Assembly (NCBI GenBank): GCA_014904985.1
Contig: MU129124.1
Coordinates: 3,869 to 21,241, forward strand
Length of the DNA stretch: 17,373 bases
DNA from: Hydnum rufescens UP504
Lineage: Eukaryota > Basidiomycota > Agaricomycetes > Cantharellales > Hydnaceae
Reading direction: 5' to 3'
Both the position numbers and the translations under genes were made by a program. Shown in pieces: positions 344-17,373 of the stretch. The first letter of the stretch is position 1. Each line of letters opens with the position of its first letter. The notes beneath the pieces were generated by a model that was given only the letters and a program-made list of their open reading frames with translations, made no database searches and was not told the DNA's origin.

Positions 344-817
344 GTATATTTAAAATAAATACTATATAATAATATTTGCCCAGGAAAACCTGAAGAAGCC
401 AATGATAATGAGTCAGAGCTCAATAAGGCATGAGATGGCTAATTGCAGAGTGATTGGGCCACTTCTACACATCTGAATTGGCCCAAATTTAAATATAGTA
501 ATGTATATATACACCCTACATGGGCGATTGATTATCGTCCGAGATAATCAATCGCCCATGTAGGTGTATATATACCATTACTATATTTAAATTTGGGCCA
601 ATTCGGATGTGTAGAAGTGCCCAATCCACTCTGCAATTAGCCATCTCATGCCTTATTGGGCTCTGACTCATTATCATTGGCTTCTTCGGGTTTTCCTGGG
701 CAGATATTTATTATATAGTATTTATCTTAAATATACATGCTTGTTACTATTGTGTACTGTGTTTGCAGCGCCAGTGCTTGGGCGCTTCTTGAGTATCGGC
801 AATTGCCGGCATTGAAT
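262..817. repeat. Long near-perfect palindrome, about 275 bp per arm
   Basis: The left arm 262-536 and right arm 543-817 are reverse complements with only a few substitutions and single-base indels, separated by a 6-nt centre (537-542, gtccga). The dyad begins at gattatc/gataatc and extends out to the caatgccggcaattgccg-like block on each side. It contains TATA-like AT-rich stretches (around 345-375 and 705-735) placed symmetrically, so it could carry identical outward promoters for both arms. At the equivalent place the second element has a centre that is not an obvious palindrome. Confidence 0.9.
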
Positions 818-1219
818 CTACATCTTGTTTCCCATCTCCGCAACCACAACAAGCAGCCGCCCGAAAAGGCAAGCGCACAACCACACACCTGCCGCTGCGG
901 GTGTGTGGTCACAAGGTGAGTGTTTTGTCTAGTAGATACAACGGTGCAAAAAGAGCAGCGGGAGCTGCTCTTTTTGCGCTCCTTTGACTCTTTATACTAA
1001 CATTTCCTGTATTATTCTAGATTGAAGCCTGAGGTCCAAGGCACGACGAAAACCCGCAAAACAAGGACCCAGACGGCAGCGCGCCAAACAAAGACGCACA
1101 AACGATGCGACACACAGCAACGCGCCACACGAAGATGCACCACACGAAGACATGCCACACGAAGACGCACCACATGCAGACGCGCCAAACGACGCACCCC
1201 ATGGCAACGTGCCAAATGA
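737..1219 (+). CDS. Possible two-exon small basic protein from right arm
   Basis: An ATG at 737 in the palindrome opens MLVTIVYCVCSASAWAL, a signal-peptide-like start. The frame runs to the donor at 916 (exon ending ACAAG, two bases of a codon left over). Splicing to the acceptor after 1020 keeps the frame open: AG+A gives Arg, then a basic Arg/Thr-rich stretch up to a TGA at 1217-1219, about 126 residues in all. The remaining units would then be 3' untranslated. Against it: the basic tail comes from low-complexity repeats, the equivalent segment of the second element has stops (for example after MLASTSCIVIERVSTSGRF), and exon lengths do not keep a frame further on. Confidence 0.25.
820..1020 (+). 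repeat. Array unit R1, element 1 (exon-like end 915; intron 916-1020)
   Basis: Hairpin A at 881-908 is ccacacacctgc/gcgggtgtgtgg with loop cgct. The exon-like part ends ACAAG at 915. The donor GTGAGT begins at 916, followed by the conserved agtagatacaac motif. Hairpin B at 946-977 is a perfect 14-bp stem with loop ggga. The branch-like actaac lies at 996-1001 and the acceptor ttctag ends at 1020. The intron would be 105 nt. The exon-like part is homologous to the start of the second element's right arm (about 14970-15148). Confidence 0.65.
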
Positions 1220-1376
1220 GGGCCCCAGGAACCACACACCCACTGCGGCGGGTGTGTGGTACTACATAAGGTGAGTCCCCGACCCCCAGTAAATACAACC
1301 GTGCAAAAAGAGCAACGAAAGCTGCTCTTTTTGTGCTGCTTTCGAACTTTTACTAATGTGTCTTTTATTATTCTAG
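1021..1376 (+). repeat. Array unit R2, element 1 (exon-like 1021-1270; intron 1271-1376)
   Basis: The exon-like segment begins ATTGAAGCCTGAGG and passes through a gacgaaaacccgc block shared by other units. It then runs through degenerate short repeats (acacgaagacgcacc, about 1128-1190) into hairpin A at 1231-1260 (11-bp arms). Donor GTGAGT is at 1271. Hairpin B at 1303-1334 has one mismatch (agcaac against gctgct) and loop gaaa. The branch-like actaat is followed by acceptor ttctag ending at 1376. The intron would be 106 nt and the exon 250 nt. Confidence 0.65.
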
Positions 1377-1756
1377 CTGTGCCTTCGTCCAACGCACGAC
1401 ATACCCACGAAACGACCAGAACCCAAACACCAACATGACACGCCAATGCGACCCGCCAATGCGACATGCCAATGCGACACAGCAACGCAACACGCCAACG
1501 CAACACGACATGCCCACACACCAACGACATGACATGCGGCGCCGCGCCAAACGAGGACGCGACCACGCCAAATGAGGATGAAACCGCGCCCAATGCGGGC
1601 CCCAGAAATCACACACCTGCCCCGGCGGGTGTGTGGTCCTATATAAGGTGAGTCCCCGTCCCCCCCTGTAGCTACACCCATGCAAAAAGAGCAGCCAAAG
1701 CTGCTCTTTTTGCGTGGTGTTTAACTCTTAACTAATTTAAAACTCTTATCCTTTAG
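1377..1756 (+). repeat. Array unit R3, element 1 (exon-like 1377-1647; intron 1648-1756)
   Basis: The 271-nt exon-like segment carries internal repeats of gccaatgcgacac type (about 1440-1520) and two copies of a ccaaatgaggatg-type motif. Hairpin A is at 1610-1636 (12-bp arms, one G:T). The exon ends TATATAAG and donor GTGAGT is at 1648. Hairpin B at 1682-1713 is a perfect 14-bp stem with loop caaa. Branch-like ctaactaat precedes acceptor ctttag, which ends at 1756. The intron would be 109 nt. Confidence 0.65.
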
Positions 1757-2032
1757 GTCTCGACTTCCCTTGCAAACGAATACCGACGCGAGCCCCCCCC
1801 TGCAACCCCATTTATCAACACCCAAACAACGGGGCGCAGAGAGGACCCGTATGTACGACCCAGAGTATACGGCCCCAGTACCCCACACTCCCACAGTGGG
1901 TGTGGGGTACTACAAAGTATGTTTTCTTTTTTATTTTCACTTCTTGTTCTTGTGGCGCAAAAAGAGCAGCATAAGCTGCTCTTTTTGCGCTGCGTTACTG
2001 TTCTACTAATGTTTCATCAATTATTTCTTTAG
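1757..2032 (+). repeat. Array unit R4, element 1 (exon-like 1757-1916; intron 1917-2032)
   Basis: The 160-nt exon-like segment matches unit L3 of element 2 (13634-13476, minus) along its length, including an acggggc-cag-gag-acccgta block. Hairpin A at 1878-1910 is gtaccccacac.../gtgtggggtac; compared with L3 it differs at positions that change together on both arms. The donor is GTATGT at 1917. Hairpin B at 1955-1990 is a perfect 16-bp stem (gcgcaaaaagagcagc) with loop ataa. Branch-like actaat and acceptor tttag (ending 2032) close a 116-nt intron. Confidence 0.65.
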
Positions 2033-2256
2033 GTCCTGAACCAGAACCCCTGCGAACCCCCAAATACGAACCCACCGAATGAGATGCCACACACGATAAC
2101 CGCGAACGAGCCCCCACAAACGAAAACCGACTCCCTCGAGGGAGTGCCCAAAGGGAACCGGCCCCCGACCGGGGTGTATGGGTATGGGCAGATGCGGGTG
2201 CATAACCCGCATGAACCATCCGCCCCCTGTGGTGGCAGACCCCCGGGGGGGGGGGG
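2033..2256 (+). repeat. Terminal array unit R5, element 1 (no following intron)
   Basis: This is an exon-like segment after the last acceptor. It holds several small palindromes: ctccctcgagggag (2131-2144), cccccgaccgggg-like (about 2162-2174), and atgcgggt/acccgcat (2192-2212), which probably derives from hairpin A. It ends in a run of C then G (about 2240-2256). No hairpin B or donor follows, so this looks like the last unit before the tail. Confidence 0.45.
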
Positions 2257-2345
2257 TAATATGTATATAGTGTAATATGTATATAATAATAGTAGTAATA
2301 ATAATAATAAATAGTAAACAAATAATAATAAATAAGTATATAATC
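2257..2345 (+). repeat. AT-rich tail (taa/ataa simple repeat), right end of element 1
   Basis: Runs of taatatgtatat, then taataataataa and aataaataag. Similar tails close both arms of element 2 (12709-12754 and 17041-17122), so this tail is a constant part of the architecture. Confidence 0.75.
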
Positions 2346-2419
2346 TAGCACAGCCATGGATTGGCCTACAGATGGCCCAAAAACTGAATTGGAATGGCCT
2401 GATTTCGGCCATAAGGTTT

Positions 2420-2490
2420 GGGGACCTATTAGGTACCATTTTCTGCCCCGAAAGTGGTACCTAAATTAGGTCCCCTATGTGACTGACCAG
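2420..2490. repeat. Dispersed self-complementary repeat, copy 1
   Basis: A roughly 70-bp block with ggggaccta..taggtacca facing tggtacctaa..taggtcccc around the loop ttttctgccccgaaag. It continues into tgactgaccag. A second copy in the same orientation lies at 6051-6122 with about four in five bases identical. A preceding ttcggcca-aa match suggests that homology extends slightly upstream. The two copies bracket the plus-strand pseudogene. Confidence 0.75.
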
Positions 2491-2588
2491 CCTGTCGATT
2501 CGGCTCGTCAGTGACCCATGAACATGGTGTCATTCTCTCTGGACTGGGCTGAGATGCAAGGGCTATCCACCCAATCTTATCAAGCAAC

Positions 2589-2873
2589 TTGCATTATCAT
2601 CGCCTACTCACTTTGATGCATGCTCAAGTCTATCACCGGGGCAAGAAGGATATCAGGGTTAATATATGGCCTACAGATGGTCTGTATGATGAAATCCTCC
2701 GTATTCTCACACGCTTGGCACACGATGTGTATGGTTCAAGTGTTACTCAACCATTGCTCGATGAGACCTTTGGGTATGTCTCTCACTTATGGGTGATAAA
2801 AATGGAGTTGGCATTAGATCGCCCTCAATTCAAAAAACACCCTAACGACATGTATGATCAAGAGAAGTTTTGA
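2589..2873 (+). CDS. Short ORF, unknown; possible gene fragment
   Basis: A 94-codon ORF with balanced composition. Its middle and end (DEILRILTRLAHDVYG, then DETFGYVSHLWVIKMELAL) read like a helical globular fragment rather than a shadow frame. There is no recognisable domain, and no obvious splice site joins it to the pseudogene that starts at 3237. It may be the 3' remnant of an older gene in this repeat-rich stretch. It lies just inside the first dispersed repeat copy. Confidence 0.3.
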   Translation: MHYHRLLTLMHAQVYHRGKKDIRVNIWPTDGLYDEILRILTRLAHDVYGSSVTQPLLDETFGYVSHLWVIKMELALDRPQFKKHPNDMYDQEKF

Positions 2874-3236
2874 ATACTTCTATACACTATCTATACATGG
2901 TTGTACTGTACTGCATTGTAGTGTAAATCGTATTTTGTTTGTGTTCGTATTTCCCGGGAATATCCAGTCCCAGGAGTAAACACGATACATTGTTCTCACT
3001 GTCCCCCTCTGCATGGACATAGACTTCTTCAGCTTTCCGCACGCAGCATTGCACTCTATATTCCGCCTTGGCATGGATTTCGGGTGATGCGCAAAACCAC
3101 AACTACGCTGTTCAGTGTTCCTTTCCACCTAGAGTGGAGGGTATCTGAGTGCAAGTTCTTAGTGTCTCCTCTTGCTCTCACACCTCGGCGCGTGTTGCAA
3201 GTGGTGATTTTTATCTCTGGCAGCAGTCTTCTCAGT
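2874..3236. other. Spacer without a supported gene
   Basis: About 360 bp between the short ORF and the plus-strand pseudogene. Only short overlapping ORFs with no recognisable content are present. It may hold the former promoter of the pseudogene. Confidence 0.5.
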
Positions 3237-5782
3237 ATGGCTGGTATGAAATCAAAGATTCAGACTGCAAGGAAGCACACTCCGCGGCCATGACATGCAG
3301 CAGTCGCCACACCCATGAGCTCCAGTAATGGAAGCAATGGCGGCAATGATCTGGATAGTGTGCTGGCATCTAAGAGGTCCTTGCAACGTGCTAGCACCAC
3401 AAAGCTCAGTACGACCTCAAATTCAGCCACGAAGGAGAAACCCTTCAGACCACCAGCCAGCCGAGTGGGAGCCATGCACCAGCCCTCACCCCTCCAGAAC
3501 GTCCTCAACTAGACTTGTGGTCGAGATCCCATCACGGAAGGTGTTAACTGCACCCTACACCTTGAATAAAATATCCAACAAGCCTACTCACGCGTCATCT
3601 CCATTCAGATATTTATCAGCGTCTTCGTCGGCATGCACACCAGTTGCTGACTTCGACTCTAATGATGAAGATTTTGGAACACCATTTGAACACAAGTTAG
3701 AGGATGGTCAAGCTAGTGTGACACAGGGAGATGATGGACTCGATGCTACTGGGGATTCTTTCCTTGACTCTATCAATGCCAGTAGTGTGCCTGCATATCA
3801 TGGCCCAAAAAGTTGCGATACCGACGTGAGAAATCAGCATGAGGTCTCACCCCCTGGTCTCTTGGACATCCAATCCCCTCCGTATTATAATCACGTTATT
3901 CCCAATCATGGCAACACCCCCATTCACAGTCCCCGTCCTGATTCCCCTGACACACCCATTTTGGATATCACGGATGGGACCCATGGCGACTTTTTGTTGA
4001 GCGATGGTGATAGTGATAATGCTGTGCCTCTGAAAGTGAGGGGCAATGCCAAGCCCCGTTCTAAGGCAGTTGTGTCCCCCCAACCTGTCTCCCACTTGTC
4101 GGAAGAGCCAAGTTCGGATGAAGATGATGAGGATCTCAAAGGAGGGCCGTTTACCACCCTGGAGGTAGAAAGATTAAGGCTGAATACACAGCGTTTGACA
4201 AGCGAATTGCGGGACTGGCGAGGGAAATGGGTCGTAGTGTTAATTCGATTCAAAAGATTGGTGGGCGGGTGTCACAAGTAGTTCATCCACGTAAAACTAT
4301 TGCCTGGACCGTGTTCCAATCCAGCTATCCTACCAACCCTGACAAGTCAGTGAGCCAATCTGATTATACCAAAAATACAGTTCACCCTGCCTATGATGAG
4401 CTCGTTAAGAAGTACGGAGGAGAGAAGTCTGAGGATTGGGCAGCAGATCAGCTCGCCTGGTTAAGGAGTACACAGAGACTAGGGCGGCGATAAGTGCAGA
4501 CATCGCAAAGCATGGGGGGGAAGTTGCGAAAATCATCACTAGCCACAAGAGGGCATGCAAAAGGATTTCAGGGCCTTGGCAAGCTTTGGGGTGCATTGCG
4601 AGTTGACAGTGCTTGCAGATAATGCCTGCTCTCCCGCTGCTCATGCTCAGAATGGGCAGCTATTTGGGACTGCAGAGATGGAATTGTACTACAAGTCCAG
4701 GCGTGACTTCAAGTCTCATGTTGGGGACGTATACACATTTATATTGTCTGCCAAGGCGGGGGTTAGGAAGGCAGAGGAGCATAAAGCTCAGACTTTGCGA
4801 CGTGAGCGAGAAGAGGCCTTCAAGAACCCCAATAAGGCAAAAGGGAAGGTTTCAAAAATGCTGATTCAGCTATTTGGTAAGTTTGCTCAATGCATAGCTT
4901 CTTGACAGTTCCTATGCTAATCCTGCTTGAGTAGAGCCGTTCATTTGTTGGACCACATTCCCTTGGCTGAAATTGCCCAAAAACTCCTCTCACACAACTT
5001 GGTGATCGATGGAGTACTGCCATTGTCTCGCTTCCGGCTTTTCGGTTCACTCTCGATTGATCACTACAGTGTCAGCGAGATCCAAGCCATGTATAATGCT
5101 CTAGAGAATGGGCAGCTCAAAGTATCTGAGTGTACCCATGAGGAATCAAACTCCGGGGAGACCACACTCATTACTGATAGTGGTGGCCAAGTGCTAATGA
5201 TGGTAGCGAGTGCATTGGAAATGATTGGGGCCAAGAAGAAGCTGGATTCGAAGAGGGCAGCTGAGCGGGCGGTTGTGAGGGCTCAGGCAGTGGATACGAT
5301 GATTGATGGAGGGGATTCTGGAGGGGATTCTGATGGGCATCATGGGAATGGGCGTCCGGTCAGGAACCCAAGTCACACTGTCATGGTGAACTTGGACAGG
5401 ATTGTGACCAAGGACTGGGGAAGAGGCCATGGAAGGGTGGGGATGATTTTAATCAGCCGCGCAAGACGAAGCGTCTGCAAGTCAAGTCTGCGGAGATCAT
5501 TGATGACTTGGATGAAACCCAACTGCTGGACCGTCCCACCTCCATGTGCAAGCTACGAGTTCTCATTGTAATGATGTGCAACAGCATTCTGCATTCTCAA
5601 GTGACAGTGAGGCTACTGTTGGGATTCCCCTTCAGCATACCACTGGGGTCCCAATTGTGCCAACGTTCAATCCGCATGATCCATTTTCTATGATGGATGA
5701 TGTGCCGATTCCAAATAGGGACATGAGTTTCCCTTTACTTGATCCTTTGTTATTTCAAGGCCCAAGTTTGAAGCACTTGTAG
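3237..5782 (+). pseudogene. Broken gene, paralogue of the minus-strand gene at 6098-10350
   Basis: Coding-like protein can be followed through the region only by changing frame repeatedly. From an ATG at 3237 an in-frame TGA lies at 3291-3293, and the same frame resumes with MSSSNGSNGGNDLDSV. Frame changes then fall near 3490-3512, 4150, 4475, 4555, 5417 and 5545. Order of parts: Ser/Pro/Asp-rich acidic N-terminal half (to about 4140); a helical segment around AFDKRIAGLAREMG; SQVVHPRKTIAWTVFQ; a segment around LADNACSPAAHAQNGQLFG; a 60-nt intron (4877-4936, GTAAGT...GAG); then a long C-terminal part ending at the TAG 5780-5782. The 4570-4740 segment aligns by eye with the minus-strand gene at about 7442-7270. 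The function is unknown; I recall similar uncharacterised proteins as abundant in agaricomycetes, which is unverified. Long-read indel errors could mimic part of the damage. Confidence 0.6.
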
Positions 5783-6050
5783 CACAATACCAAAGTAGAT
5801 ATGAAGTAGACAGATTTTATTAATGGTTTCTTAATGTGTTTGTACTGTGGCCTTAATGGAAGGTTGTTTTATTTAAGAATTCTAAGTTGTTCCTTCAAGG
5901 CAGAATGGAAAGACTTGCAATAGTGGTCTTCAATTGAGTCTGCTCAAGTCCTGAGTGCTAAGTCCTAATTCGGGTCAATTTCGGCCAACTTTCAGCCCAA
6001 AGCTCAAGTGAGAGATTTCAATGGGGCAGACCAATTCGGCCAAAATAGTG
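5783..6050. other. Spacer between convergent gene remnants
   Basis: An AT-rich stretch after the plus-strand stop, with no ORF of note. It ends at the second copy of the dispersed repeat. It probably holds the 3' end region of the plus-strand gene. Confidence 0.5.
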
Positions 6051-6122
6051 ATGGGACCTACTTAGGTACCATTATCTGCCCCAGAAGTGGTACCTAACTA
6101 GGTAGGCTTAGATGACTGACCA
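6051..6122. repeat. Dispersed self-complementary repeat, copy 2
   Basis: The same block as 2420-2490: gggaccta..taggtaccatt, loop atctgccccagaag, tggtacctaa, then tgactgacca. The right outer arm has decayed (aggtaggc instead of aggtcccc). It overlaps the 3' end of the minus-strand gene: the stop codon (TAG, 6100-6098) and the last codons are formed by the repeat, so the gene's present C-terminus was set by this repeat. Confidence 0.75.
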
Positions 6123-6199
6123 AGGTGTGACAGATCTCGAATCTCAGATCGAACACCACCACTATCATCAGTAGAATGAATGAAAGACAGGATGGGTGT

Positions 6200-6405
6200 T
6201 TGAGAGGGTGCATGAGAGGGTGCGCGAGAGGGTTCACGAGAGGGTTCGTGAGAGGGTTCACAAGAGGGTTCGCGAGAGGGAGCACGAGAGGGAGCACGAG
6301 AGGGAGCACGAGAGATTGCATGAGAGGGTGCAAGAAAGGGAGCACAAGAGGGAGCACGAGAGATTGCATGAGAGGGTGCAGGAAAGGGAGCACAAGAGGG
6401 TACAT
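6200..6405 (-). repeat. 12-bp tandem repeat encoding Ala/Glu-Pro-Ser-Arg/His/Cys
   Basis: About seventeen copies of gagagggnncac-type 12-mers on the plus strand, with a longer period superimposed (a gattgcatgagagggtgca block occurs twice). On the minus strand they encode four-residue units such as APSR, EPSC and APSH near the C-terminus of the minus-strand gene. The plus-strand ORFs across it are shadows. Confidence 0.85.
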
Positions 6406-9195: not shown

Positions 9196-9531
9196 TCAAC
9201 AGGACTGCGCTTGACAGGACCATGTAAGACAGGACCACATTCAACAGGACCACCTTCAACAGGACTGCCCTCGACACAACCACATTCAACAGGACCACAT
9301 TCAACAGGACCATATTCGACAGGACCATATTCGACAGGACCATATTCGACAGGACCATATTCGACAGGACCACGTTCGACAGGACCACGTTCGACAGGAC
9401 CACGTTCGACAGGACCGTGGTCGACAGGACCATGTTTGACAGGACCGTGTTTGACAGGGCCATGGTCGACAGGACTGTGCTCAACAGGACCGCGTTTTTG
9501 ACAGGACTGCAGTCACGTTTGACAGGATCAC
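9196..9531 (-). repeat. 15-bp minisatellite encoding GPVEx pentapeptides
   Basis: About 22 copies of acaggaccatattcg-type 15-mers. On the minus strand, in the frame that joins the flanking exon sequence, they read GPVEY, GPVER, GPVDH, GPVKH and so on. The frame is broken once by two extra T bases at 9495-9499, in a copy with ttttt where its neighbours have ttt. Homogeneous central copies (about 9301-9375, GPVEY) suggest recent expansion. Confidence 0.85.
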
Positions 9532-10350
9532 AGTCGCCTTCAACACCATTGTGCTTGTCCCTGGCTGCTTCATGCTGTTGTTCAATAGGCCTGCCATCTT
9601 TCATTGGGGAGTCCTCGGCTGGGTCTCGAGAGCCAAAACCCCCCTCGACAGTCCCACTATCAATGCCTGCATTCTGGTAAATAACTTAAGCAACCCAGTA
9701 GAGTGGAATCTAAGAATTTGCCACCATACCTGTTTGTTTGATCCCTCGACAGAGGTCGTGGGAGTAGCATTCTTCTGAGTATAGTTGTACATTAGATATG
9801 GTAGAAAATGGAACATTTGTCACGTACTATTTCATCCGTTGTATTATTTTTCAGCCTGGATCTTGCTGGAGCGCGCCTTGGCTTCTTCGGAATCACAGGC
9901 TCCTTATCATTGTCAAGCATCTGTTTTCCAATGTAAATTATGCAGCAACACCCAAAGGAGAACAAAAAAACCAATACCTTTCTGGCTTTATGCTTACGCT
10001 TGCCCCTGGCTTCGCGCTCGTCTGCTAGCAGATCTTCTTTGTTCGCACGGTAAGTGGCAACTGCAGTATTCTTTGTTGCTGCTTGACGAGAAGGATGCTA
10101 TGCAGGATGTGAGTCATTCAATCATGCTTGATTAACAAGCAATACCATACAAGGCTTTCCCCCTGGCATGTTTCCTATGTAGGCGTATGTCATCCACAGT
10201 GTGAATAAATATTCAAAAACGTACTTCAGCTTCCCGGTCTGAATTACCAAGCTGATTTGGATGAGAAACAGGTATCTCGAATGATTGCTAGCCTCTCTTA
10301 CTTACTTGTTGTCCTTGGGCAGGCAGGGCCACTGGTTTCTTTCTCGGCAT

Positions 10351-11498
10351 GGCCAACAGGAACACCAGGCGGTGGTTCGGCAACAGACGACCTGAGTCCC
10401 GGCATCCACCGGACCCCATTCAACAAATAGAGAGTGTGTAAATCTCGATTTATAGACCGTTACTTCCTGTTTTTGAATCAGAACCCATGGTGATATTCAG
10501 TCTGCAATAAATATCTCTACTAATGGAGGACTCATTTGATGTGTGGCATGGAGTCGAAGAAACAGGAATTACTGAATGAGATGGAATCAACCCATGAATG
10601 TGGATTGAAGGGAATGTTGGTTTTTTTATGAATCCATATCTATACCCAGAGAAATACTGCAGGAGAGAGTGGTGGCGAAATAGGGAATCCTGTTGACAAG
10701 TGAACATAGCTCAACACTGGCAGTTCCCAGAATGCAAGAAGCACCCATATTCCACCGGAAATCAGCCTATCCACGATCAGATTCATCAAATATGAATAGA
10801 CTCTCATATCTGAAGTGACATTCAATGGTTCTATACACAAAAATTGAAAGAACAGGGGAAGTGAGTAAGCTCTCAAAGGATGCGCTATATCAGAGCATTG
10901 AAAGGTAATTTCTGGGCATTGGAAAGGCCCTAAAATAAGGTATATTAGTGGTATATGTAAATATTTTAGGTTGATGCCTTAGGAACATCTCAGGGATTGC
11001 TCAAAACCATAATCATCATATTTGGTCAAGTGGATTTGCCACCTCTATCGGCTTGGGTCATGTCATTTCTTGGATTTCAAGTTCAATATCCCATACCTAT
11101 AATTTATTTAGAATTGTTTGAGGCAAAAAGTCTGGCCACTCTAACCGGTCTTTGTTCCAAACTCTGATCTCAAATAATTCCAAGTAAACTACCAACTTTC
11201 TGATCCAACTCATGATGATCCAAACCCCGAGGTGAATACACTTGAAAAAATATGGGAAGCTAGAAATGTGCCCATACATCTATCTGTCTCGTGTGACTGA
11301 AGTGACTACTTCAACTGTAGGCTCAGTCACGCATCGCTGTGACTTCTTTCTGCGTTTATGTTGAGTCTCATGGCTGTATCCCAATAGCGATATCCCAATT
11401 CATCCTCTTCATGAATGTCAACCATACAGTGGTACTACGTGGATTTATACATTGTATAGGTTCCAAGAAGTGGCCATTTATGGTACAGTTATCAATAC
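10351..11498. other. 1.15-kb region without a supported gene
   Basis: AT-rich sequence between the start of the minus-strand gene and the stop of the GRF gene. The short ORFs on either strand show no recognisable content. An 8-bp inverted repeat, gtgactga/tcagtcac, lies at 11293-11330. The part nearest 10351 is where the promoter of the minus-strand gene should be. Confidence 0.5.
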
Positions 11499-12397
11499 TC
11501 ATTCATCAGCAAAGATATCAGCCTGACTATCATCACCGTAGTTGTCAGCTTCTCCATCGCCGCCGTCAATGTCAGTATTGCGGTATTCCTGTTGACTAGC
11601 CATATACTCCAAGGCCTGGATACGATCTTCCAATGATGCAACCTTGCGCTGTACACTCACCACTCTTGTATTGAACCCGGTGAGGCCTTCTCTCATATCA
11701 CGATGCACTTCACGCATGCCCAAAACAACAGCATCTAGCTTCTGAGCCAAGTCATCTCCAGAGATGAGTGGCTGTGGAAGTCGGAGACCAGAGGGCGAAT
11801 CCGCAGGACTCTGTGACAAACGAATTAGCTTGTTCTAGAATACTCGTTTGAATTGACAACATATGGAACATCCGATGGCAACCTGTTGTGGAAATGGATG
11901 TTCTTTATGAGGCGAGCCCCTGAGTGTAGTAAGTATCTTCTGATTCCTGTACTCCCGCCAGGGTGCCTTTGATGGTGACACCATAACTGATGGTGACTTT
12001 GGCTTCGTGGGTGAACTGGGAGGGGTCAGCATGGTCGGCAGCATCTTGGATGGTGTTTCTGCCTGATCATCTGCCCACTCTGACCATTGGCCATCCATAA
12101 ATTTAGTATGTGTGTCTGAGAGTCTCAAATTCATGAGACGCACTGAAGAATTTACAAGATTCAGGCTCAGTATGATATTTTCGGCATCCCCAGTATTTGC
12201 GTCCAAGATTTTCATTATTTGTCTGCGATGTGTGAAGCACAGCTGCATCACTGTCAGATGAGTATCTGGCAGACTCTCTGGCATGCGTGACATACCTGGT
12301 TGATCGCATCGACATTTCTTAGGCAGCAGCATGGGGAGTGCTCCATCAGTATTTCTCCTTTGATGAAGGATACATTTGGTGAGTTGCTGTCACCCAT
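11499..12397 (-). CDS. GRF-type zinc-finger protein with C-terminal coiled coil (229 aa, four exons)
   Basis: Exons 12397-12296, 12222-12144, 12079-11883 and 11810-11499 join without breaks into 229 codons plus stop. Donors: GTATGT (12295), GTGCGT (12143), GTTGCC (11882). Acceptors: GCAG, TCAG, ACAG. The GRF zinc finger becomes visible only after splicing: CCC at residues 23-25, then NLGRKYWGC (39-47) and CKFFKWADD (57-65), matching the family pattern C-x-C...N-x-GR-x-(F/Y)-x-x-C...C-x-FF-x-W. Exon 3 is a Pro/Ser-rich linker. Exon 4 has a predicted coiled coil (VVSVQRKVASLEDRIQALEY) and an acidic end. GRF fingers bind single-stranded nucleic acid in DNA-repair enzymes; here the finger stands alone with a coiled coil, so the role is unknown. 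It is the only protein gene in the window without disabling changes. A coding-looking stretch upstream (about 12500-12560, minus) could be an extra 5' exon. Confidence 0.7.
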
Positions 12398-12570
12398 TTG
12401 TTGCTTCCGGTCATTCTAGGCCTTCCTTGTCATATGCGACTGCTAGTGTTGCTACACCTTGGCCCGAATCAATGGAAATTAGATTCGCAATCTATCCACT
12501 CACCTTCAGAGCCTGGACGTTCACAACCTCTAGATGGATCCAAAGCAGCCTGGTCAGCCAATTATCGGTA
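12398..12570 (-). other. Upstream region of GRF gene; possible extra 5' exon
   Basis: On the minus strand a coding-looking piece (ADQAALDPSRGCERPGSE, about 12560-12505) ends at a good donor (GAAG|GTGAGT, near 12503). A possible acceptor (gcctag) lies near 12417. If used, it would lie in the 5' part of the GRF transcript. I could not fix a continuous frame into the ATG at 12397. The region stops at the left terminal repeat of element 2. Confidence 0.3.
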
Positions 12571-12615
12571 TCTAACTAGATACTTCAAGGGTTGCATTTA
12601 TATGCTCTAACTAGA
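12571..12615 (+). repeat. Left terminal inverted repeat of element 2
   Basis: A 45-bp block, tctaactaga + 25 bp + tctaactaga, containing ttgcatttatat. The reverse complement of 17313-17357 has the same layout, with about 32 of 45 bases matching by eye: tctagttagata at the outer end, ttgcatttatat in the middle and tctaactaga inside. Confidence 0.7.
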
Positions 12616-12704
12616 TATCAGACCCAGGGGGCCCCCAGGGGCCCCTGCAATTCAGTCGAGGGGGCCGGTCAAGCAGCCCAGGGGCCCCTGGGGCCCCTAG
12701 CCAT
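12616..12704. repeat. GC-rich palindrome cluster (aggggcccct), left
   Basis: Two palindromic blocks built on gggggccccc and aggggcccct, separated by a spacer with caattcagtcgagg. A matching cluster lies next to the right terminal repeat (17231-17302). It is strongly hairpin-forming and belongs to the terminal structure. Confidence 0.7.
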
Positions 12705-12708
12705 TAGG

Positions 12709-12754
12709 ATTATTTATTTATTATTTATTCATTTATTTATTATTATTATATACA
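12709..12754 (-). repeat. AT-rich tail, left end of element 2
   Basis: attatttatttattatt and tattattattatata runs; on the minus strand this is the ataa/taa tail that closes the left arm, as at 2257-2345 and 17041-17122. Confidence 0.75.
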
Positions 12755-13016
12755 CTAGGCTCGCCCAGTGGGGCTCACCCATGCACCCAAGAAGAGCAGC
12801 CAGAGGCTGCTCTTCTTGCGCAATGTAGCTAAGGAAAATAAATACTAGGGGGGACTCACCGTATATAGGGCCACTCGTTGGGCGCGTTCGGTTCTCGTCT
12901 GGTGAATTGCCGTTTGTCATGTCACCGTTTGGTGTGTTGTCGTCCATTGCGTCGCCCTTTGGTGTGTTGCCATTTGGGCCCTTGTTTGTTTTGCGGGTTT
13001 TCATTGTGGCCACAAT
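12755..13016 (-). repeat. Array unit L5, element 2 (exon-like 13016-12860; intron 12859-12755)
   Basis: The exon-like segment begins ATTGTGGCCACAATG, then the aaaacccgcaaaac block typical of units, then degenerate repeats that can be read as TPNGD/SPDEN. No hairpin A is recognisable. Donor GTGAGT is at 12859. Hairpin B at 12788-12818 is caagaagagcagcc/ggctgctcttcttg, in which one A:T pair of the common stem has become G:C on both arms. The weak acceptor cctag gives a 105-nt intron, the same length as other units. Confidence 0.5.
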
Positions 13017-13359
13017 CTAGAGTAATAAAAGATATATTAGTACAAATATCCAAAGCAGCGCAAAAAGAGCAGCTTTCGCTGCTCTTTTTGCGCGGGTGTA
13101 GCTACTGGGGTGCAGGGACTCACCTTAAATCGTACCACACACCCGCTACGGCGGGTGTGTGGTACCTGGGGTCCTCATTTGGCGCCTTTGCGTGTCCCGC
13201 GTTGGTGCATGTTGCGTTGGTGCGTGTTGCGTGTTGCGTGTTGCGTGTTGCGTGTTGCGTGTTGCGTGTCGTGTGTCGCGTGTCATGTTGGCACATGTCG
13301 CATTACCGCTCGGTCCCTCATTGTTTCGTGGGTTTTCGTCGTGTCTTGGACAAGTCAAC
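13017..13359 (-). repeat. Array unit L4, element 2 (exon-like 13359-13124; intron 13123-13017)
   Basis: The exon-like segment (236 nt) begins GTTGACTTGTCC with the acacgacgaaaaccca block and contains the heptamer run at 13222-13270. Hairpin A at 13132-13165 is a perfect 15-bp stem, gtaccacacacccgc/gcgggtgtgtggtac, with loop tacg. Donor GTGAGT is at 13123. Hairpin B at 13058-13093 is a perfect 16-bp stem, loop tttc on the plus strand. The branch lies around 13036-13041 and acceptor CTCTAG ends at 13017. The intron would be 107 nt. Confidence 0.65.
13222..13270 (-). repeat. 7-bp tandem repeat (gcgtgtt)n
   Basis: About seven consecutive gcgtgtt copies (aacacgc on the sense strand) inside the exon-like part of unit L4. 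Seven is not a multiple of three, so this expansion would disrupt any reading frame. Confidence 0.85.
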
Positions 13360-13634
13360 CTAGAATAATAAACGAATCGTTAGTATGAATATTCAAAGCA
13401 ACGCAAAAAGAGCAGCTCATGCTGCTCTTTTTGCGCCACAAGAATCAGAAATAAAAAATAAAAATAAAAACTTACCTTGGAGCACCCTACACCCGCTGTG
13501 GCGGGTGTAGGGTACTGGGAGCGCGGACTCCGGCTCATACGTACGGGTTCTCCCTGTGCCCCGTCATTCGGGCGTCGATAAGGGGGGGTACGGGGGGTTC
13601 TGCGTCGGTATTGGTTCGCGAGAATGGTTAATAC
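13360..13634 (-). repeat. Array unit L3, element 2 (exon-like 13634-13476; intron 13475-13360)
   Basis: The 159-nt exon-like segment is the counterpart of unit R4 of element 1. Hairpin A at 13484-13513 is a perfect 13-bp stem, accctacacccgc/gcgggtgtagggt, loop tgtg. Donor GTAAGT is at 13475. Hairpin B at 13402-13435 is a perfect 15-bp stem, loop tcat. The branch ACTAAC lies at 13384-13379 and acceptor TTCTAG ends at 13360. The intron is 116 nt, the same length as in R4. Confidence 0.65.
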
Positions 13635-14062
13635 CTATAAAATAATATTGTTAAATTAGTTAAAAATTAAACACCACACAAAAGAGCAGCTTTCGCTGCT
13701 CTTTTTGCGTGGTTGTAGCTACTGGGGGTGGGGACTCACCTTATATGGGACCACACACCCGCCGTGGCGGGTGTGTGATTCCTGGGCCCTCATTTGGCGT
13801 GGTCACGTCCTCGTTTGGCGCGTTGCTGTGGGTCGCGTCCCCATTTGACGTGGTGCCGTATTTCGCATCGTTGCCGCGTTGCTGTGGGTCGTGTCCTCTT
13901 TTGGCGCGGTGCCGTATCTCACGTCGTTGCCGGCGTCGCGTCCTCATTTGGTGTGCTGCCGTATTTCACGCGTTGGCCCCTTGCTGTGGGTCGCGTGTCG
14001 GGCTGCCGTTTGGGTTCTCGTTATTTCGCGGGCTATCGTCGTGTGTTGAACGAAGCCTCAAT
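13635..14062 (-). repeat. Array unit L2, element 2 (exon-like 14062-13740; intron 13739-13635)
   Basis: The longest exon-like segment (323 nt). It begins ATTGAGGCTTCG, like unit R2 of element 1, and carries several degenerate copies of a ccaaatgaggacgcg-type motif. Hairpin A at 13752-13777 has 12-bp arms cacacacccgcc/ggcgggtgtgtg and a 2-nt loop. Donor GTGAGT is at 13739. Hairpin B lies at 13676-13709 with one weak position. The branch ACTAAT is at 13660-13655 and acceptor TTATAG ends at 13635. The intron would be 105 nt. Confidence 0.65.
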
Positions 14063-14376
14063 CTAGAATAATTAAAGTCGCGTTAGTAAAAAGTTTCAAA
14101 GCAGCGCAAAAAGAGCAGCTTTCGCTGCTCTTTTTGCGCCGTCGTACCTACTAGCAGACGAAGCTCACCCTTCATCGCACGACAACATACCTCCGCCGGT
14201 GGCGGGCGCATCGTGTCCGCCGCCGCATCGCGCTGGCTTCTCAGCGCGGGCCCACCGCCGTTGCTTTGGTGTGGTTTCGGACGACTCCCCGAGACGGAGA
14301 CAGATCCGACATTCAACTGCGCCATTGCCGCTACTCTCAACCGCAAGCGCCACCCCCGTCCGCGCGGCTCCCCCAA
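14063..14376 (-). repeat. Array unit L1, element 2 (first unit of left arm; intron 14168-14063)
   Basis: The minus-strand first exon-like segment is GC-rich with an ORF from 14376 (MGEPRGRGWRLRLRVAAM...) open through the donor. Only a short hairpin A-like dyad, ccgcc/ggcgg, remains at 14193-14205. The donor is GTGAGC at 14168. Hairpin B at 14104-14139 is a perfect 16-bp stem, loop tttc on the plus strand. The branch ACTAAC is at 14087-14082 and acceptor TTCTAG ends at 14063. The intron is 106 nt. Splicing to unit L2 leads to an immediate TGA in the ORF frame, so a protein product is doubtful. Confidence 0.55.
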
Positions 14377-14969
14377 ACTACACCAGATTGATAGCCAGCT
14401 CGTGCACCCTGACCTAATCAGACCACGTCACCCCATCCACCCCAACCTACTCCTCGCTCGCTCCTCACTTGAAGACAGAAGCTCTACAACCACATGCACA
14501 GAGCGCTCACTCAAGCGGCACTAACTGGCTCTCTCGCCCAGTGACTTCCAGACTCCACTCTCTCTACATCGCGCAACCTCTCCTTACAATATTACTGATG
14601 CGTACCCTACCACCCTACAATGTAGACACCAATTATATGCCAGACGATCTGGCATTCTTCAATTTTTCACAGCCTTCAATTCCTAAATCAGGGAACTTGA
14701 ACGGCGCTGATAAAATTGACAAATGCAGAAATCGTCCTGATATAATTCGTCTCCTCGTCGCGGTCGCTCACTTATACTCCATCCTATATATTTACCAACT
14801 TTGGGCATGTCTTGGTCTCAGCGAAGTGATCTAATCCTTTGCAATGAGGGCGATATCGTCCTGTATTGAGGCTCCGGCTCGATTTTTACTCGCCTCCCTT
14901 CTTCACATTTTTCAAAAACAAATATTCCTTTGTATCATCCTTTCCTATACTTACACGCAATCTACATGC
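14377..14969. other. Centre of element 2 (candidate bidirectional promoter region)
   Basis: Sequence between the two diverging arms. GC content falls from left to right. An ORF at 14469-14834 has no recognisable content and is probably chance. There is no long palindrome here, unlike element 1. If both arms are transcribed, the start sites for both directions should lie in this stretch. Confidence 0.35.
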
Positions 14970-15254
14970 TTGCATCAACCTCCTGTATTGTGATTGAACG
15001 CGTCAGCACTTCTGGGCGCTTCTGAGTAATCGCACTGCCGGCATCTTGAATTTCCGCAACTACGAGACCCCCAGCAACAGAACGACAACACGACGACCCC
15101 ACAACCACACGACCACAACACCCGCCTGCTGCGGGTGTGTGGTCTAAGGTGAGTTTTAGTCAGTAGATACCATTAGCGCAAAAAGAGTAGCACAACCTAC
15201 TCTTTTTATTGTGCACTTTGAATTCTTATACTAACATAGCTTTTATTATTTTAG
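14970..15254 (+). repeat. Array unit R1, element 2 (exon-like to 15148; intron 15149-15254)
   Basis: It begins with a segment homologous to the arm start of element 1 (acatgcttg...tgggcgcttct-gagta...ctgccggcat). Hairpin A at 15111-15144 is gaccacaacacccgc/gcgggtgtgtggtc with one bulge. Donor GTGAGT is at 15149, followed by cagtagatacc. Hairpin B around 15176-15214 keeps an 11-bp core, aaaaagagtag/ctactcttttt, with a changed pair matched on both arms. Branch ACTAAC is at 15230-15235 and acceptor tttag ends at 15254. The intron would be 106 nt. Confidence 0.6.
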
Positions 15255-15503
15255 ATTATGGCCTAAGGCCCGAGACGAAAACCCACCGCACGATGAGGGC
15301 CCGACGGCAAGAGCCAAACCAAAAGAAACGACAGACCGCCCAATGGGTGGCCCCAGGAACCACACCCGCTGCGGCGGGTGTGGTACTATTTAAGGTGAGT
15401 GTTGCCCCCCCCCCAATAGATACAGTTGCGCAAAAGACAGCGAAAGCTGGTCTTTTTGCGCTGAATTATAACCTTAACTAACATAGTATTTTTGATATTC
15501 TAG
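15255..15503 (+). repeat. Array unit R2, element 2 (exon-like 15255-15394; intron 15395-15503)
   Basis: The 140-nt exon-like segment begins ATTATGGCCTAAGG with a gacgaaaaccca block. Hairpin A at 15359-15384 is a perfect 11-bp stem, accacacccgc/gcgggtgtggt, loop tgcg; it is shorter by one ca on each arm than the common form. Donor GTGAGT is at 15395. Hairpin B at 15428-15461 is partly decayed. Acceptor ttctag ends at 15503. The intron would be 109 nt. Confidence 0.6.
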
Positions 15504-15733
15504 GTCACGCTTTGAACCACCATCCGCATGAGCGCCAACCGAAACTACACCAAGTGAAAACCCGATGAACACCCCACCGAACGATAAACCAACGCAAACC
15601 AGACACCCGCCACGGCGGGTGTCTGGTTATACATTCAAGGTATGTGTCCCCAACGGCGCAAAAAGAGCAGCGAAAGCTGCTCTTTTTGCGCTACTTTGAA
15701 TTTCTTTACTGATTCCTTTTTAATTCATTCTAG
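15504..15733 (+). repeat. Array unit R3, element 2 (exon-like 15504-15639; intron 15640-15733)
   Basis: Hairpin A at 15598-15627 is a perfect 13-bp stem, accagacacccgc/gcgggtgtctggt, loop cacg. Against the common accacacacccgc form, C to G on the left arm is matched by G to C on the right. The donor is GTATGT at 15640. Hairpin B at 15656-15691 is a perfect 16-bp stem, loop gaaa. Branch-like actgat is followed by acceptor ttctag ending at 15733. The intron would be 94 nt. All three exon frames contain stops. Confidence 0.65.
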
Positions 15734-16000
15734 GCCATCAAATGAAACCCCCCCAAACGACGAGGCCCAATCGGCCAGGGCCCCAGCGGCAACACGCAAA
15801 CAGAAACCACGCGAAATGAAAACGCGAGACGTGGCCATGCACCACCCGAGTGGCCGTGCGAACCGCGAACACACACCCGCTGTGGCGGGTGTGTGGTTCT
15901 ATACAAGGTAAGTGTACCCCCAACGGCGCAAAAAGAGCAGCAAATGCTGCTCTTTTTGCGCTGGTTTTAATTTATCTAACTAATACATCCATTATTCTAG
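15734..16000 (+). repeat. Array unit R4, element 2 (exon-like 15734-15907; intron 15908-16000)
   Basis: The 174-nt exon-like segment is fully open in one frame (starting PSNETPPNDEAQ, ending HTPAVAGVWFYT plus two bases). Hairpin A at 15867-15899 has a single missing base on the left arm. Donor GTAAGT is at 15908. Hairpin B at 15926-15961 is a perfect 16-bp stem, loop aaat. Branch ctaactaat precedes acceptor ttctag, ending at 16000. The intron would be 93 nt. Confidence 0.65.
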
Positions 16001-16248
16001 GCTGCCACAAACGAAGATCGGCGAAACAAACCCCTCCGAAACGATAACCCGCCCGCAAAGTCGAACGACGACACACCAAACGAAAACACGAGACGACGCC
16101 AACCCGGACGAACCACACACCCGCAGAAGCGGGTGTGTGGTAATTTCAAGGTAAGTACGATCACACAAAAGGAGCAGTGCACGCTGCTCCTTTGCGTGGC
16201 TTTCTGTTTTTTTTTTTTCTCTCTTTCATTAACATTATTTATCTCTAG
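16001..16248 (+). repeat. Array unit R5, element 2 (exon-like 16001-16150; intron 16151-16248)
   Basis: The 150-nt exon-like segment is open in two frames. Hairpin A at 16112-16141 is a perfect 13-bp stem with loop agaa. Donor GTAAGT is at 16151. Hairpin B around 16163-16199 has core aaaggagcag/ctgctccttt, where the common aaaagag/ctctttt pairs have become aaaggag/ctccttt on both arms. A pyrimidine tract and branch attaac precede acceptor ctctag, ending at 16248. The intron would be 98 nt. Confidence 0.65.
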
Positions 16249-16566
16249 GCTTTAATCTCAGCCTACAAACCCCGTCAACCCCCAAATAAAGATCCACCAC
16301 CCGCCGAAGACACCTGCGAGAATGGCAACCACCCGCCAGACGAAACCCACGAGAACGGAAACCCGCCAACCCCCTAAGTGGCGACCAGCCCCTGTACCAA
16401 GTACGAACCGCGTGACCATGGTACCAAATAGTACCACATACCCACTTAGGTGGGTGTGTGGTACTACAAAGGGGTTTTTTTTTTAAATTTTGATATCTTC
16501 AACGATGCCAAGGGAGCAGCGCAAGCTGCTCCTTTTGCGTCACTTCGAATTTTTTTTACTAACTAG
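16249..16566 (+). repeat. Array unit R6, element 2 (donor lost)
   Basis: Hairpin A at 16430-16465 is the longest of the arm: 16-bp arms agtaccacatacccac/gtgggtgtgtggtact with one G:T pair. Where the donor should be, the sequence reads tacaaaggggttttt, with no GTRNGT. Hairpin B at about 16510-16535 is shortened to an 8-bp core, ggagcagc/gctgctcc. An actaactag sequence ending at 16566 merges branch and acceptor. Splicing here is doubtful. Confidence 0.5.
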
Positions 16567-16788
16567 GATTCAAATTGAAGGACCCAAAATGCAACCCGTG
16601 CCCCGCGCTCAACGGTGAAGTGCCAAGCCACGCCCCAGTACCACACACCCACTTGGGCGGGTGTGTGGTGCTACTAGTTAATTTTTTTTTTTGAATTTCT
16701 ATATGTACAGCAACGCAAAAGGAGCAGCGCAAAGCTGCTCCTTTTGCGTGCCTTCAAATTTTTTTACTAACATATGCTATTATTGTAG
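16567..16788 (+). repeat. Array unit R7, element 2 (donor lost, hairpin B intact)
   Basis: Hairpin A at 16641-16668 has 10-bp arms ccacacaccc/gggtgtgtgg. The expected donor position reads ctagttaatttttt. Hairpin B at 16713-16749 is a perfect 16-bp stem, acgcaaaaggagcagc/gctgctccttttgcgt, loop gcaaa. Branch ACTAAC and acceptor ttgtag ending at 16788 are still good. Confidence 0.5.
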
Positions 16789-17040
16789 GATCCAAGCCGG
16801 AGCGCCCGAAATGACGACCCACCCCAACAGCAACCCGCCTGTCCAAATGACCTGCCCAACGGTGAAGGCCACGCCCCTGGTACCACACACCCGCCCAAGC
16901 GGGTGTGGTGCTACTAGATAGGTTTTTTTAATTTTAATTTCTATGGACTGTACCAACACCCGCCTAAGTGGGTGTGTGGTGAGTAGTTTTTTTTTCTTGG
17001 ATTTCTACAGATGGTACCACACCCCAGTGGGTGTGGTGAA
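16789..17040 (+). repeat. Distal hairpin-A-only repeats (R8 and two remnants), element 2
   Basis: Three hairpin A copies follow each other: 16882-16910 (one base missing on the right arm), 16952-16980 (imperfect) and 17016-17037 (accacaccc/gggtgtggt). Each is followed by a T run (ggttttttt, gagtagtttttttt, aattttta). There is no hairpin B. The spacing shrinks toward the tail. Confidence 0.55.
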
Positions 17041-17122
17041 TTTTTAAATAAATAAATAAATAATAAACAACTCAGTAAGAATGAAACACAGAACAGTGAT
17101 AATAATAAATAAGTAATTATAA
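17041..17122 (+). repeat. AT-rich tail, right end of element 2
   Basis: aaataaataaataaat and gataataataaataag runs, matching in character the tails at 2257-2345 and 12709-12754. Confidence 0.75.
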
Positions 17123-17230
17123 ATGGAACATATTATCTGTGATAAGCGCATATGGCCCACTGTGCAAGTCTGAGATTAGGTGACTGAAGAAAATGCCGAA
17201 CCAATATATTGGAGTTCTGTGGCATTCTAA

Positions 17231-17302
17231 GTCCCCCACAGGGGCCCCTGGGGGCCCTGCCTGAATCACGGAAATCAGGTTAGCCGGCCCCAGGGGCCCC
17301 AG
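17231..17302. repeat. GC-rich palindrome cluster (aggggcccct), right
   Basis: Blocks acaggggcccctgggggccc and ggccccaggggcccc around a spacer with gaatcacggaaatcagg. This is the inverted partner of 12616-12704. Confidence 0.7.
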
Positions 17303-17312
17303 CATCAAAACC

Positions 17313-17357
17313 TCTAGTTAGACTATATAAATGCAAGGCTCGTAATATCTAACTAGA
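17313..17357 (-). repeat. Right terminal inverted repeat of element 2
   Basis: tctagttaga + 25 bp + tctaactaga, containing atataaatgcaa. It is the reverse-complement partner of 12571-12615. The 16 bases beyond it show no clear duplication of the bases left of 12571. Confidence 0.7.
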
Positions 17358-17373
17358 CCTACATTTGTGGGCT

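What the first reader, a model, noticed from the sequence alone, without database searches (positions are those of the whole stretch)
820..17040. Tandem exon-intron-hairpin arrays: two alternating conserved hairpins, one at the exon end and one inside each intron
At least 14 units in two elements share one layout: exon-like segment, hairpin A (cacacaccc/gggtgtgtg) ending about 5-15 nt before a GTRNGT donor, a conserved AGTAGATACA-like stretch, hairpin B (gcaaaaagagcagc/gctgctctttttgc), a branch site, then a YAG acceptor. Predicted introns are 93-116 nt. Exon starts also align (gacgaaaaccc block), so whole exon+intron blocks were duplicated rather than introns inserted one by one. I know of no named element or RNA with this layout. 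Hairpin B would pull donor and branch site together; hairpin A would sit beside every splice junction.
Basis: partly seen in the sequence, partly recalled or inferred. Interest (0 to 1): 0.88.

Follow-up and report, generated by a model that had tools for sequence, protein, structure and literature searches.

The report
Spliced hairpin arrays in mushroom transposons
In what is most likely the hedgehog mushroom Hydnum rufescens, an estimated few hundred transposon-like elements carry two back-to-back arrays of exon-intron units with a conserved hairpin at each exon end and inside each intron; they are predicted to be non-coding RNA genes that are spliced, which would be a new kind of cargo for a transposon.

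Summary
All ten proposed junction pairs fit GT-AG introns with a branch-like site, and both hairpins covary. The window holds one nearly whole and one cut transposon-like element. Each has two arrays pointing away from a promoter-like centre (palindromic in the left element), AATAAA-bearing tails, and ends beginning CAGSCTGGTCAG and CACCYTGGTCAG. 6 of 17 tested end pairs have 7-8 bp target-site duplications. The genome (most likely Hydnum rufescens UP504) has at least about 2,100 hairpin-B copies and 577 promoter motifs. The donor word is upstream of hairpin B 573 times and on the wrong side 0 times. Predicted GT and AG are intact in 93-94% of related copies, other GT/AG in 65-67%. Exons keep no reading frame in 20 of 21 arrays tested. 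6 of 14 KDZ-transposase matches have a CAG end in the right place; one of three KDZ ends tested matches 4 of 7 array ends. Best reading: non-autonomous KDZ-type transposons carrying divergent, predicted spliced, likely non-coding RNA genes. What the RNAs do is inferred only; I favour the intron array keeping the element's transcription productive, so that a KDZ transposase can reach it. No RNA data were available.

The parts
1..81 (-). left element, left arm: predicted first intron with hairpin B (20-52), acceptor outside the window
263..817 (.). palindromic centre (arms 263-372/708-817 and 371-503/576-708, 94% complementary) with TATA-like, divergent promoter-like halves
   Evidence: a motif of it occurs 577 times genome-wide
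820..2494 (+). left element, right arm, up to the CAG end (CAGGCTGGTCAG on the minus strand at 2494)
880..909 (+). hairpin A before the first donor of the right arm
916..1020 (+). predicted intron with hairpin B 944-979
1271..1376 (+). predicted intron with hairpin B 1301-1336
1648..1756 (+). predicted intron with hairpin B 1680-1715
1917..2032 (+). predicted intron with hairpin B 1955-1990
2262..2345 (+). A/T-rich tail with AATAAA (predicted polyadenylation region)
   Evidence: sequence; tail counts
2483..2494 (-). terminal motif CAGGCTGGTCAG, right end of the left element
12546..12557 (+). terminal motif CAGCCTGGTCAG, left end of the right element
12709..12755 (-). A/T-rich tail of the left arm of the right element (AATAAA 5 sense, 0 antisense in 12546-12788)
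13017..13123 (-). predicted intron with hairpin B
13360..13475 (-). predicted intron with hairpin B
13635..13739 (-). predicted intron with hairpin B
14063..14168 (-). first intron of the left arm; donor degenerate (GTGAGC, boundary set by eye against other copies; the script chose another donor)
14200..15060 (.). centre of the right element, first-exon homology at its right side seen by eye (approximate limits)
15149..15254 (+). predicted intron with hairpin B
15395..15503 (+). predicted intron with hairpin B (the script chose a nearer acceptor, 15486)
15640..15733 (+). predicted intron with hairpin B
15908..16000 (+). predicted intron with hairpin B
16151..16248 (+). predicted intron with a shortened hairpin B
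16435..17040 (+). 3' part: several hairpin-A copies, two hairpin-B copies (16508, 16714) with weak or missing splice signals
17041..17075 (+). AATAAA-rich tail (5 sense, 0 antisense in 16980-17373)
17230..17373 (+). subterminal region of the right end; the CACC end itself is inferred to lie just past the window by homology (e.g. L021:9111), the flank is masked

Best explanation
These are likely non-autonomous KDZ-type DNA transposons whose interior is two divergent arrays of exon-intron units, predicted to be transcribed from a shared central promoter, spliced, and not translated. SHOWN by sequence: two kinds of end (CAGSCTGGTCAG, CACCYTGGTCAG), 7-8 bp duplications at some insertions, divergent arrays, AATAAA on the sense strand of nearly every tail examined, a hairpin A just before the donors, a hairpin B between donor and branch site, stems kept by paired changes, GT/AG kept better than other GT/AG, no kept reading frame. 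INFERRED: Pol II transcription from the centre; splicing; movement by a KDZ transposase in trans. INFERRED AND WEAKER (my commitment, about 0.3): hairpin B shortens the intron path, and hairpin A buries the GTGTGT decoy donor that its own 3' arm often contains, so each unit is spliced cleanly. The array of clean introns then keeps the transcripts productive, in a fungal phylum where introns can be needed for expression, and so keeps the centre open for the transposase. Arms grew by tandem duplication of whole units.
For: Ends: CAGSCTGGTCAG 511+497 against 3+4 for the reversed pattern; CACCYTGGTCAGNCA 217+243 against 1+1. Duplications: 6 of 17 end pairs that I chose from the two lists (4 of 15 fetched as short flanks, plus L022 and L044 read by eye), against 0 of 156 mispairings of 13 of these pairs with 5 bp or more. 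Five of those six contain arrays (L022; the four others by position). Divergence: minus-then-plus arrays in 15 of 19 stretches by eye; promoter motif 290+287 against 0+1 reversed, and among the 100 listed places 21 minus/plus pairs 602-619 bp apart, two more at 385 and 921 bp, no plus/minus pair within 1 kb. Splice signals: 93 of 149 sense against 3 of 149 antisense; 573 against 0; 1,860 against 64. Selection: GT intact 513 of 553 and AG 522 of 555 in related copies, other GT 1,967 of 3,035 and AG 1,894 of 2,839; the real site wins in 63 of 73 and 66 of 74 reference units and loses in 6 and 6. Covariation: hairpin A 56 two-sided cells against 16.6 +- 3.2 shuffled, hairpin B 83 against 30.6 +- 3.9, 0 of 500 shuffles reaching either. 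Non-coding: stop-free runs within 2 sd of shuffles in 20 of 21 arrays; 72 exon lengths mod 3 (0/1/2) = 27/19/26. Tails: AATAAA on the sense strand in 12 of 13, none on the antisense strand in 11 of 13. KDZ: at least 154 PF18758 matches; of the 14 listed on contigs 1-15, 6 have an inward CAG end 1.6-1.9 kb past their 3' side (P about 8e-8 with contig lengths partly estimated); the C1 KDZ element's subterminal sequence matches 4 of 7 array ends (scores 61-68, shuffled maximum 27). Decoy: GTGTGT upstream of donors (42 in 92 units) has median unpaired probability 0.0, the real donor 0.3.
Against: No RNA evidence. 11 of 17 end pairs lack a duplication; some pairs may be wrongly joined. L044, one of the six with a duplication, has no arrays. 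The C1 KDZ end does not match 3 of 7 array ends, among them the window's right element; two other KDZ ends match none of the 7 beyond the terminal 12 bases. 8 of 14 KDZ matches have no such end nearby and 2 of 14 also have one on the 5' side; no whole KDZ element with both ends was seen. Kyakuja is reported to lack TIRs, while these ends are short imperfect inverted repeats. Non-Watson-Crick stem pairs show no RNA-strand bias in hairpin A (G-U 72, A-C 67) and a slight one in B (81 against 53), so the stems could be kept at DNA level. Some two-sided swaps (A-U to C-G, 12 in A pair 4, 15 in B pair 5) have no one-sided intermediates, and for hairpin A the number of pairs with two-sided change is reached by 41 of 500 shuffles; the hairpins counted had been picked by stem score and loop length. 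One of 21 arrays (L023 minus, 126 codons against 65 +- 14) has a longer stop-free run than shuffles. 14 of 149 oriented units lack both signals. Copies are related, so counts are not independent. The closest anti-silencing precedent (HUSH, human cells) does not need splicing, and short introns protect little (passages of PMC8770142).
Confidence: 0.55

Rival explanations
1. The hairpins work (or persist) as DNA: palindromes kept perfect by hairpin-templated repair or used as cruciform or protein-binding sites in transposition, with splice signals a leftover of an ancestral gene.
For: No G-U over A-C bias in hairpin A; swaps without one-sided intermediates; the centre itself is a long palindrome in several elements.
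Against: GT/AG at the predicted sites are kept better than other GT/AG; donor and branch lie on fixed sides of a symmetric hairpin genome-wide; slight RNA bias in hairpin B.
Confidence: 0.25
2. Decayed or fast-evolving low-complexity protein genes of the transposon: exons once coded for repeats and the frame has been lost in these copies.
For: Exons are repetitive and T-poor; stop-free runs reach 67-148 codons and one of 21 arrays exceeds its shuffles; arm-1-like arrays also occur next to an accessory gene.
Against: 20 of 21 arrays have stop-free runs within 2 sd of shuffles; exon lengths are spread over mod 3; a protein search with one exon frame had no candidate.
Confidence: 0.08
3. Introner-like elements: single introns that spread one by one into other sequence.
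For: High-copy, similar introns with internal symmetry; introners with TSDs and TIRs exist (passage of PMC9860276).
Against: Exon ends, exon starts and hairpin A travel with the intron, and the units seen lie in arrays, many next to transposon ends. Host genes were not searched exon by exon.
Confidence: 0.05
4. Small-RNA factories: hairpins cut to miRNA-like or mirtron-like RNAs.
For: Excised introns would carry a stem; hairpin small RNAs are discussed in fungi (search listing).
Against: Stems counted are 13 and 16 bp, short for Dicer (recalled knowledge); no Rfam family at gathering score.
Confidence: 0.07

Closest known systems
Kyakuja / KDZ DNA transposons of Agaricomycetes
   Same: CA..TG ends and 7 bp TSDs for Kyakuja, 8 bp for a Dileera family (sections 3.2 and 3.1.1 of PMC12730594 read) and for Zisupton (passage); six KDZ loci in this genome have the same terminal 12-mer nearby and one shares subterminal sequence with 4 of 7 array ends.
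   Different: No KDZ gene was seen in the array elements; their interior is divergent hairpin arrays with predicted introns. Kyakuja is said to have no TIRs, these have short imperfect inverted ends. A term search of that paper's main text found 0 uses of 'hairpin' or 'nonautonomous'.
Introners / introner-like elements of fungi
   Same: Mobile, high-copy, intron-like, sometimes with TSDs and TIRs (passages of PMC9860276; listing of PMC4457414).
   Different: Here exon plus intron blocks are duplicated inside a longer element. A term search of PMC9860276's main text found no Hydnum or KDZ.
Internally symmetrical stwintrons of Hypoxylaceae
   Same: Related introns with internal symmetry in a fungus (listing of PMC8469720).
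   Different: Nested twin introns, in another phylum; seen as a listing only, so its transposon features were not checked.
Foldback-type elements (recalled)
   Same: Large inverted repeat.
   Different: The inverted repeat is the central promoter-like region, not the ends.

Membership tests
KDZ (Kyakuja-like) transposon, non-autonomous member | CA..TG termini | tested here: met
   CAG... and CACC... ends
KDZ (Kyakuja-like) transposon, non-autonomous member | 7 bp (Kyakuja) or 8 bp (Zisupton/Dileera) TSD | tested here: met
   6 of 17 pairs: two of 7 bp, four of 8 bp; 11 of 17 none
KDZ (Kyakuja-like) transposon, non-autonomous member | no TIRs (reported for Kyakuja) | tested here: inconclusive
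   the two ends are short imperfect inverted repeats of about 12 bases; whether these count as TIRs is a matter of definition
KDZ (Kyakuja-like) transposon, non-autonomous member | termini shared with a KDZ-coding element of the same genome | tested here: inconclusive
   terminal 12-mer in 6 of 14 loci; subterminal match for 1 of 3 KDZ ends, to 4 of 7 array ends
KDZ (Kyakuja-like) transposon, autonomous | encodes a KDZ transposase | tested here: not met
   no match on contig 216 among the listed KDZ matches (capped list); no coding frame in the arrays; the nine ORFs lie between the two elements and gave no KDZ match either
Introner-like element | the intron alone is the mobile unit, inserted in genes | tested here: inconclusive
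   exon parts travel along; host genes not searched
Spliceosomal intron (U2 type) | GT donor, branch CTRAY, YAG acceptor in order | tested here: met
Spliceosomal intron (U2 type) | removed from RNA | not testable with these tools
   no RNA reads held
Protein-coding gene | open frame kept across junctions | tested here: not met
   20 of 21 arrays like shuffles, 1 of 21 above
Rfam family | match at gathering score | tested here: not met
   0 matches in the window

The most novel reading that the evidence does not exclude
A transposon class whose cargo is splicing itself: hundreds of non-coding, divergent gene pairs made of tandemly copied, hairpin-assisted introns that act as a device keeping the element transcribed and mobile against host silencing.
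Probability: 0.25. Interest if true: 0.92.

Novelty: new variant of a known kind. Interest (0 to 1): 0.7.

Why it matters
DNA transposons are not known to me (recall) to maintain rows of non-coding introns, and the papers listed (open-licence library, top 5-20 listed per search) show no such description in the titles and abstract starts that I saw. With at least about 2,100 hairpin-B copies and 577 promoter motifs in one genome, the family is a large natural experiment. Many variants of one intron design with covarying hairpins can test how RNA structure sets splice-site choice, and whether introns shield mobile elements from fungal silencing. It also warns gene annotators: such arrays could be called as spurious multi-exon genes.

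Tried and rejected
Coding hypothesis: stop-free runs (20 of 21 arrays within 2 sd of shuffles, one above) and exon phase gave little support. A protein search with an exon frame had no candidate. Rfam found nothing in the window at gathering score. Pfam on nine ORFs from the middle of the window found only a sub-threshold low-complexity match. A viral-contig scan for the exact hairpin B found 0. The RNA-against-DNA test by G-U and A-C counts was indecisive (120 hairpin A and 116 hairpin B kept after a stem-score filter and removal of duplicates). 'Hairpin B holds a constant effective distance' was not supported: CV rises from 0.107 to 0.158 when the hairpin is taken off. The HUSH analogy was weakened by the paper itself. 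Rows dropped before counts: 51 of 200 hairpin-B units without clear orientation; 42 of 197 units without a full signal set, alignments above 97% or below 65% identity or not covering the unit, 42 of 141 hairpin A and 49 of 142 hairpin B (other loop length, or duplicate). In one search some printed introns are wrong calls (decoy GTGTGT donors, 172-nt ones, a too-near acceptor at 15486); later calls used a stricter donor. In one search the row named KDZ_C2_730160 is a CAG end that is not the nearest one to the KDZ match; it matches the other three array ends (scores 37-51, shuffled maxima 23-26). In one search two of 26 rows (L025-8762, L018-3672, the latter masked upstream) do not align well upstream.


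Full report
WHERE IT IS. The window is bases 3869-21241 of contig 216 of a 63.2-Mb genome in 539 contigs. A KDZ reading frame from contig 1 is 100% identical over 86% of the query to a protein of Hydnum rufescens UP504. The host is most likely that ectomycorrhizal hedgehog mushroom. The window's flanks are masked.

OBSERVATION. The units are real: 17 hairpin-B and 17 hairpin-A matches in the window. In 20 sequences, with orientation taken from hairpins only, both signals are on the sense strand in 93 of 149 units and on the antisense strand in 3 of 149; 51 of 200 units were not orientable. Genome-wide, the palindromic hairpin B has GGTGAGT upstream 573 times and never on the wrong side; ACTAA is downstream 1,860 times (some of them antisense readings of TTAGTAGATAC) and on the wrong side 64 times. 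The exact 14-base arm occurs 2085+2058 times, the reversed control 0.

ANATOMY. By eye, 15 of 19 stretches show arrays head to head (minus then plus; L016 and L020 show one direction, L018 and L019 are unclear), and several centres are inverted repeats (L012, L013, L015, L021, L025, L027). In the window the left centre is 263-817. An alignment of 26 first-unit upstream regions shows a conserved TATA-like stretch and a GGCAATTGCC motif in most rows. A 20-base motif from it occurs 577 times with up to 3 mismatches (1 for the reversed pattern). Among the 100 listed places there are 21 minus/plus pairs 602-619 bp apart, two more at 385 and 921 bp, and no plus/minus pair within 1 kb. By eye, two first-exon types exist and paired arms usually show one of each; the type-2 arm lies at the CAG end in W left, L013 and L014, and the type-1 arm at the CACC end in L022. 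In other elements the link is by homology only. Tails carry AATAAA on the sense strand in 12 of 13 examined; totals were 49 sense and 2 antisense (W2- and L013- are near-identical copies).

ENDS AND MOBILITY. One end begins CAGSCTGGTCAG, the other CACCYTGGTCAG. I chose 17 end pairs from the two lists. Six have perfect 7-8 bp duplications (four of 15 fetched as flanks; L022 and L044 read by eye), and 11 have none. 0 of 156 mispairings among 13 of the pairs match by 5 bp or more; one alternative pairing of nested ends shares 4 bp. Five of the six contain arrays (L022; the four others judged from positions); L044 contains none. One of them (C5:102535-108997) sits inside another (C5:98049-109487), in what looks like an array intron.

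LINK TO KDZ. PF18758 has at least 154 matches. Of the 14 listed on contigs 1-15, 6 have an inward CAG end 1.6-1.9 kb beyond their 3' side (P about 8e-8, contig lengths partly estimated); 2 of these also have a CAG end on the 5' side. Leaving out the terminal 12 bases, the contig-1 KDZ element's end matches 4 of 7 array ends (scores 61-68, shuffled maximum 27) and not the other 3, which include the window's right element; two other KDZ ends match none. Kyakuja is reported with 7 bp TSDs, CA..TG ends and no TIRs (PMC12730594, sections 3.2 and 3.1.1 read). I therefore call the elements KDZ-type, most likely non-autonomous; the exact lineage is open.

NON-CODING. In 21 arrays with at least three introns, the longest stop-free run of the joined exons is within 2 sd of shuffled exons in 20 and above it in one (L023 minus, 126 codons against 65 +- 14). 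72 exon lengths fall 27/19/26 on 0/1/2 mod 3.

SELECTION AND STRUCTURE. In 555 alignments of 92 reference units to related copies, predicted donor GT is intact in 513 of 553 and acceptor AG in 522 of 555; other GT and AG outside hairpins are intact in 1,967 of 3,035 and 1,894 of 2,839. By reference unit the real site wins 63 and loses 6 of 73, and wins 66 and loses 6 of 74. Copies are related, so these are not independent events. Stem pairs covary: hairpin A 56 two-sided cells (16.6 +- 3.2 shuffled), hairpin B 83 (30.6 +- 3.9), no shuffle of 500 reaching either, and slid structures lower. The number of pairs with two-sided change is less clear for A (7, reached by 41 of 500 shuffles). The hairpins counted had been picked by stem score and loop length. 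Against an RNA-only reading, G-U and A-C departures are about equal in hairpin A (72, 67) and slightly skewed in B (81, 53), and some A-U to C-G swaps lack one-sided intermediates.

HOW IT WOULD WORK (inference). Transcription starts in the centre in both directions. Hairpin A's 3' arm often contains GTGTGT, a decoy donor that is predicted to be paired (42 cases in 92 units, median unpaired 0.0 against 0.3 for real donors). Hairpin B would shorten the intron path from a median of 106 to 72 nt, although it does not hold a constant distance. Clean splicing in rows would keep the RNA productive. [quoted passage not shown] The HUSH precedent for intron shielding is only a loose analogy, since it does not need splicing and short introns protect little (passages of PMC8770142).

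SURROUNDINGS. Next to one CACC-like end, an arm-1-like array follows an accessory gene (L016 and L049, 96% identical over 3.1 kb; sequence). The window's own frame at 4227-4490 resembles that gene over 47 residues (32%, E 1e-8 in a small two-file comparison) and lies before a CACC end at 6127, so the middle of the window is probably the remains of a coding relative.

VERDICT. The thing is a transposon-borne, predicted spliced, likely non-coding hairpin array: a new variant of a known kind, with an untested and potentially important role for splicing.

Noticed in passing
window 263-817: About 555-bp near-perfect palindrome at the divergent centre; long palindromes are usually unstable (recalled), so recent formation or active homogenisation is likely.
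   Followed up: partly
window 4227-6127: Frame related over 47 residues to an accessory gene of L016/L049 (E 1e-8), followed by a CACC-type element end at 6127: probably remains of a coding relative.
   Followed up: partly
window 6202-6401 and 9213-9475: 12-bp (16.7 copies) and 15-bp (17.5 copies) tandem repeats inside frames that stay open and encode repeated peptides.
   Followed up: no
window 147-205: (TGC)n repeat of about 20 units in the first exon of the left arm.
   Followed up: no
G000 C5:98049-109487 and C5:102535-108997: One element nested in another, with 7- and 8-bp duplications; the inner one lies in what looks like an array intron.
   Followed up: partly
L011:1-1405 and L011:4755-6161: 98.9% identical 1.4-kb duplication of part of an array region within one stretch.
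   Followed up: no
window 12620-12690 and 17230-17300: Subterminal GGGGCCCC-rich motifs near both ends of the right element.
   Followed up: no
L016:2427-5529, L049:4899-8001: Arm-1-like array with three introns downstream of an accessory protein gene, next to a CACC-like end; may show the ancestral arrangement or a chimera.
   Followed up: partly
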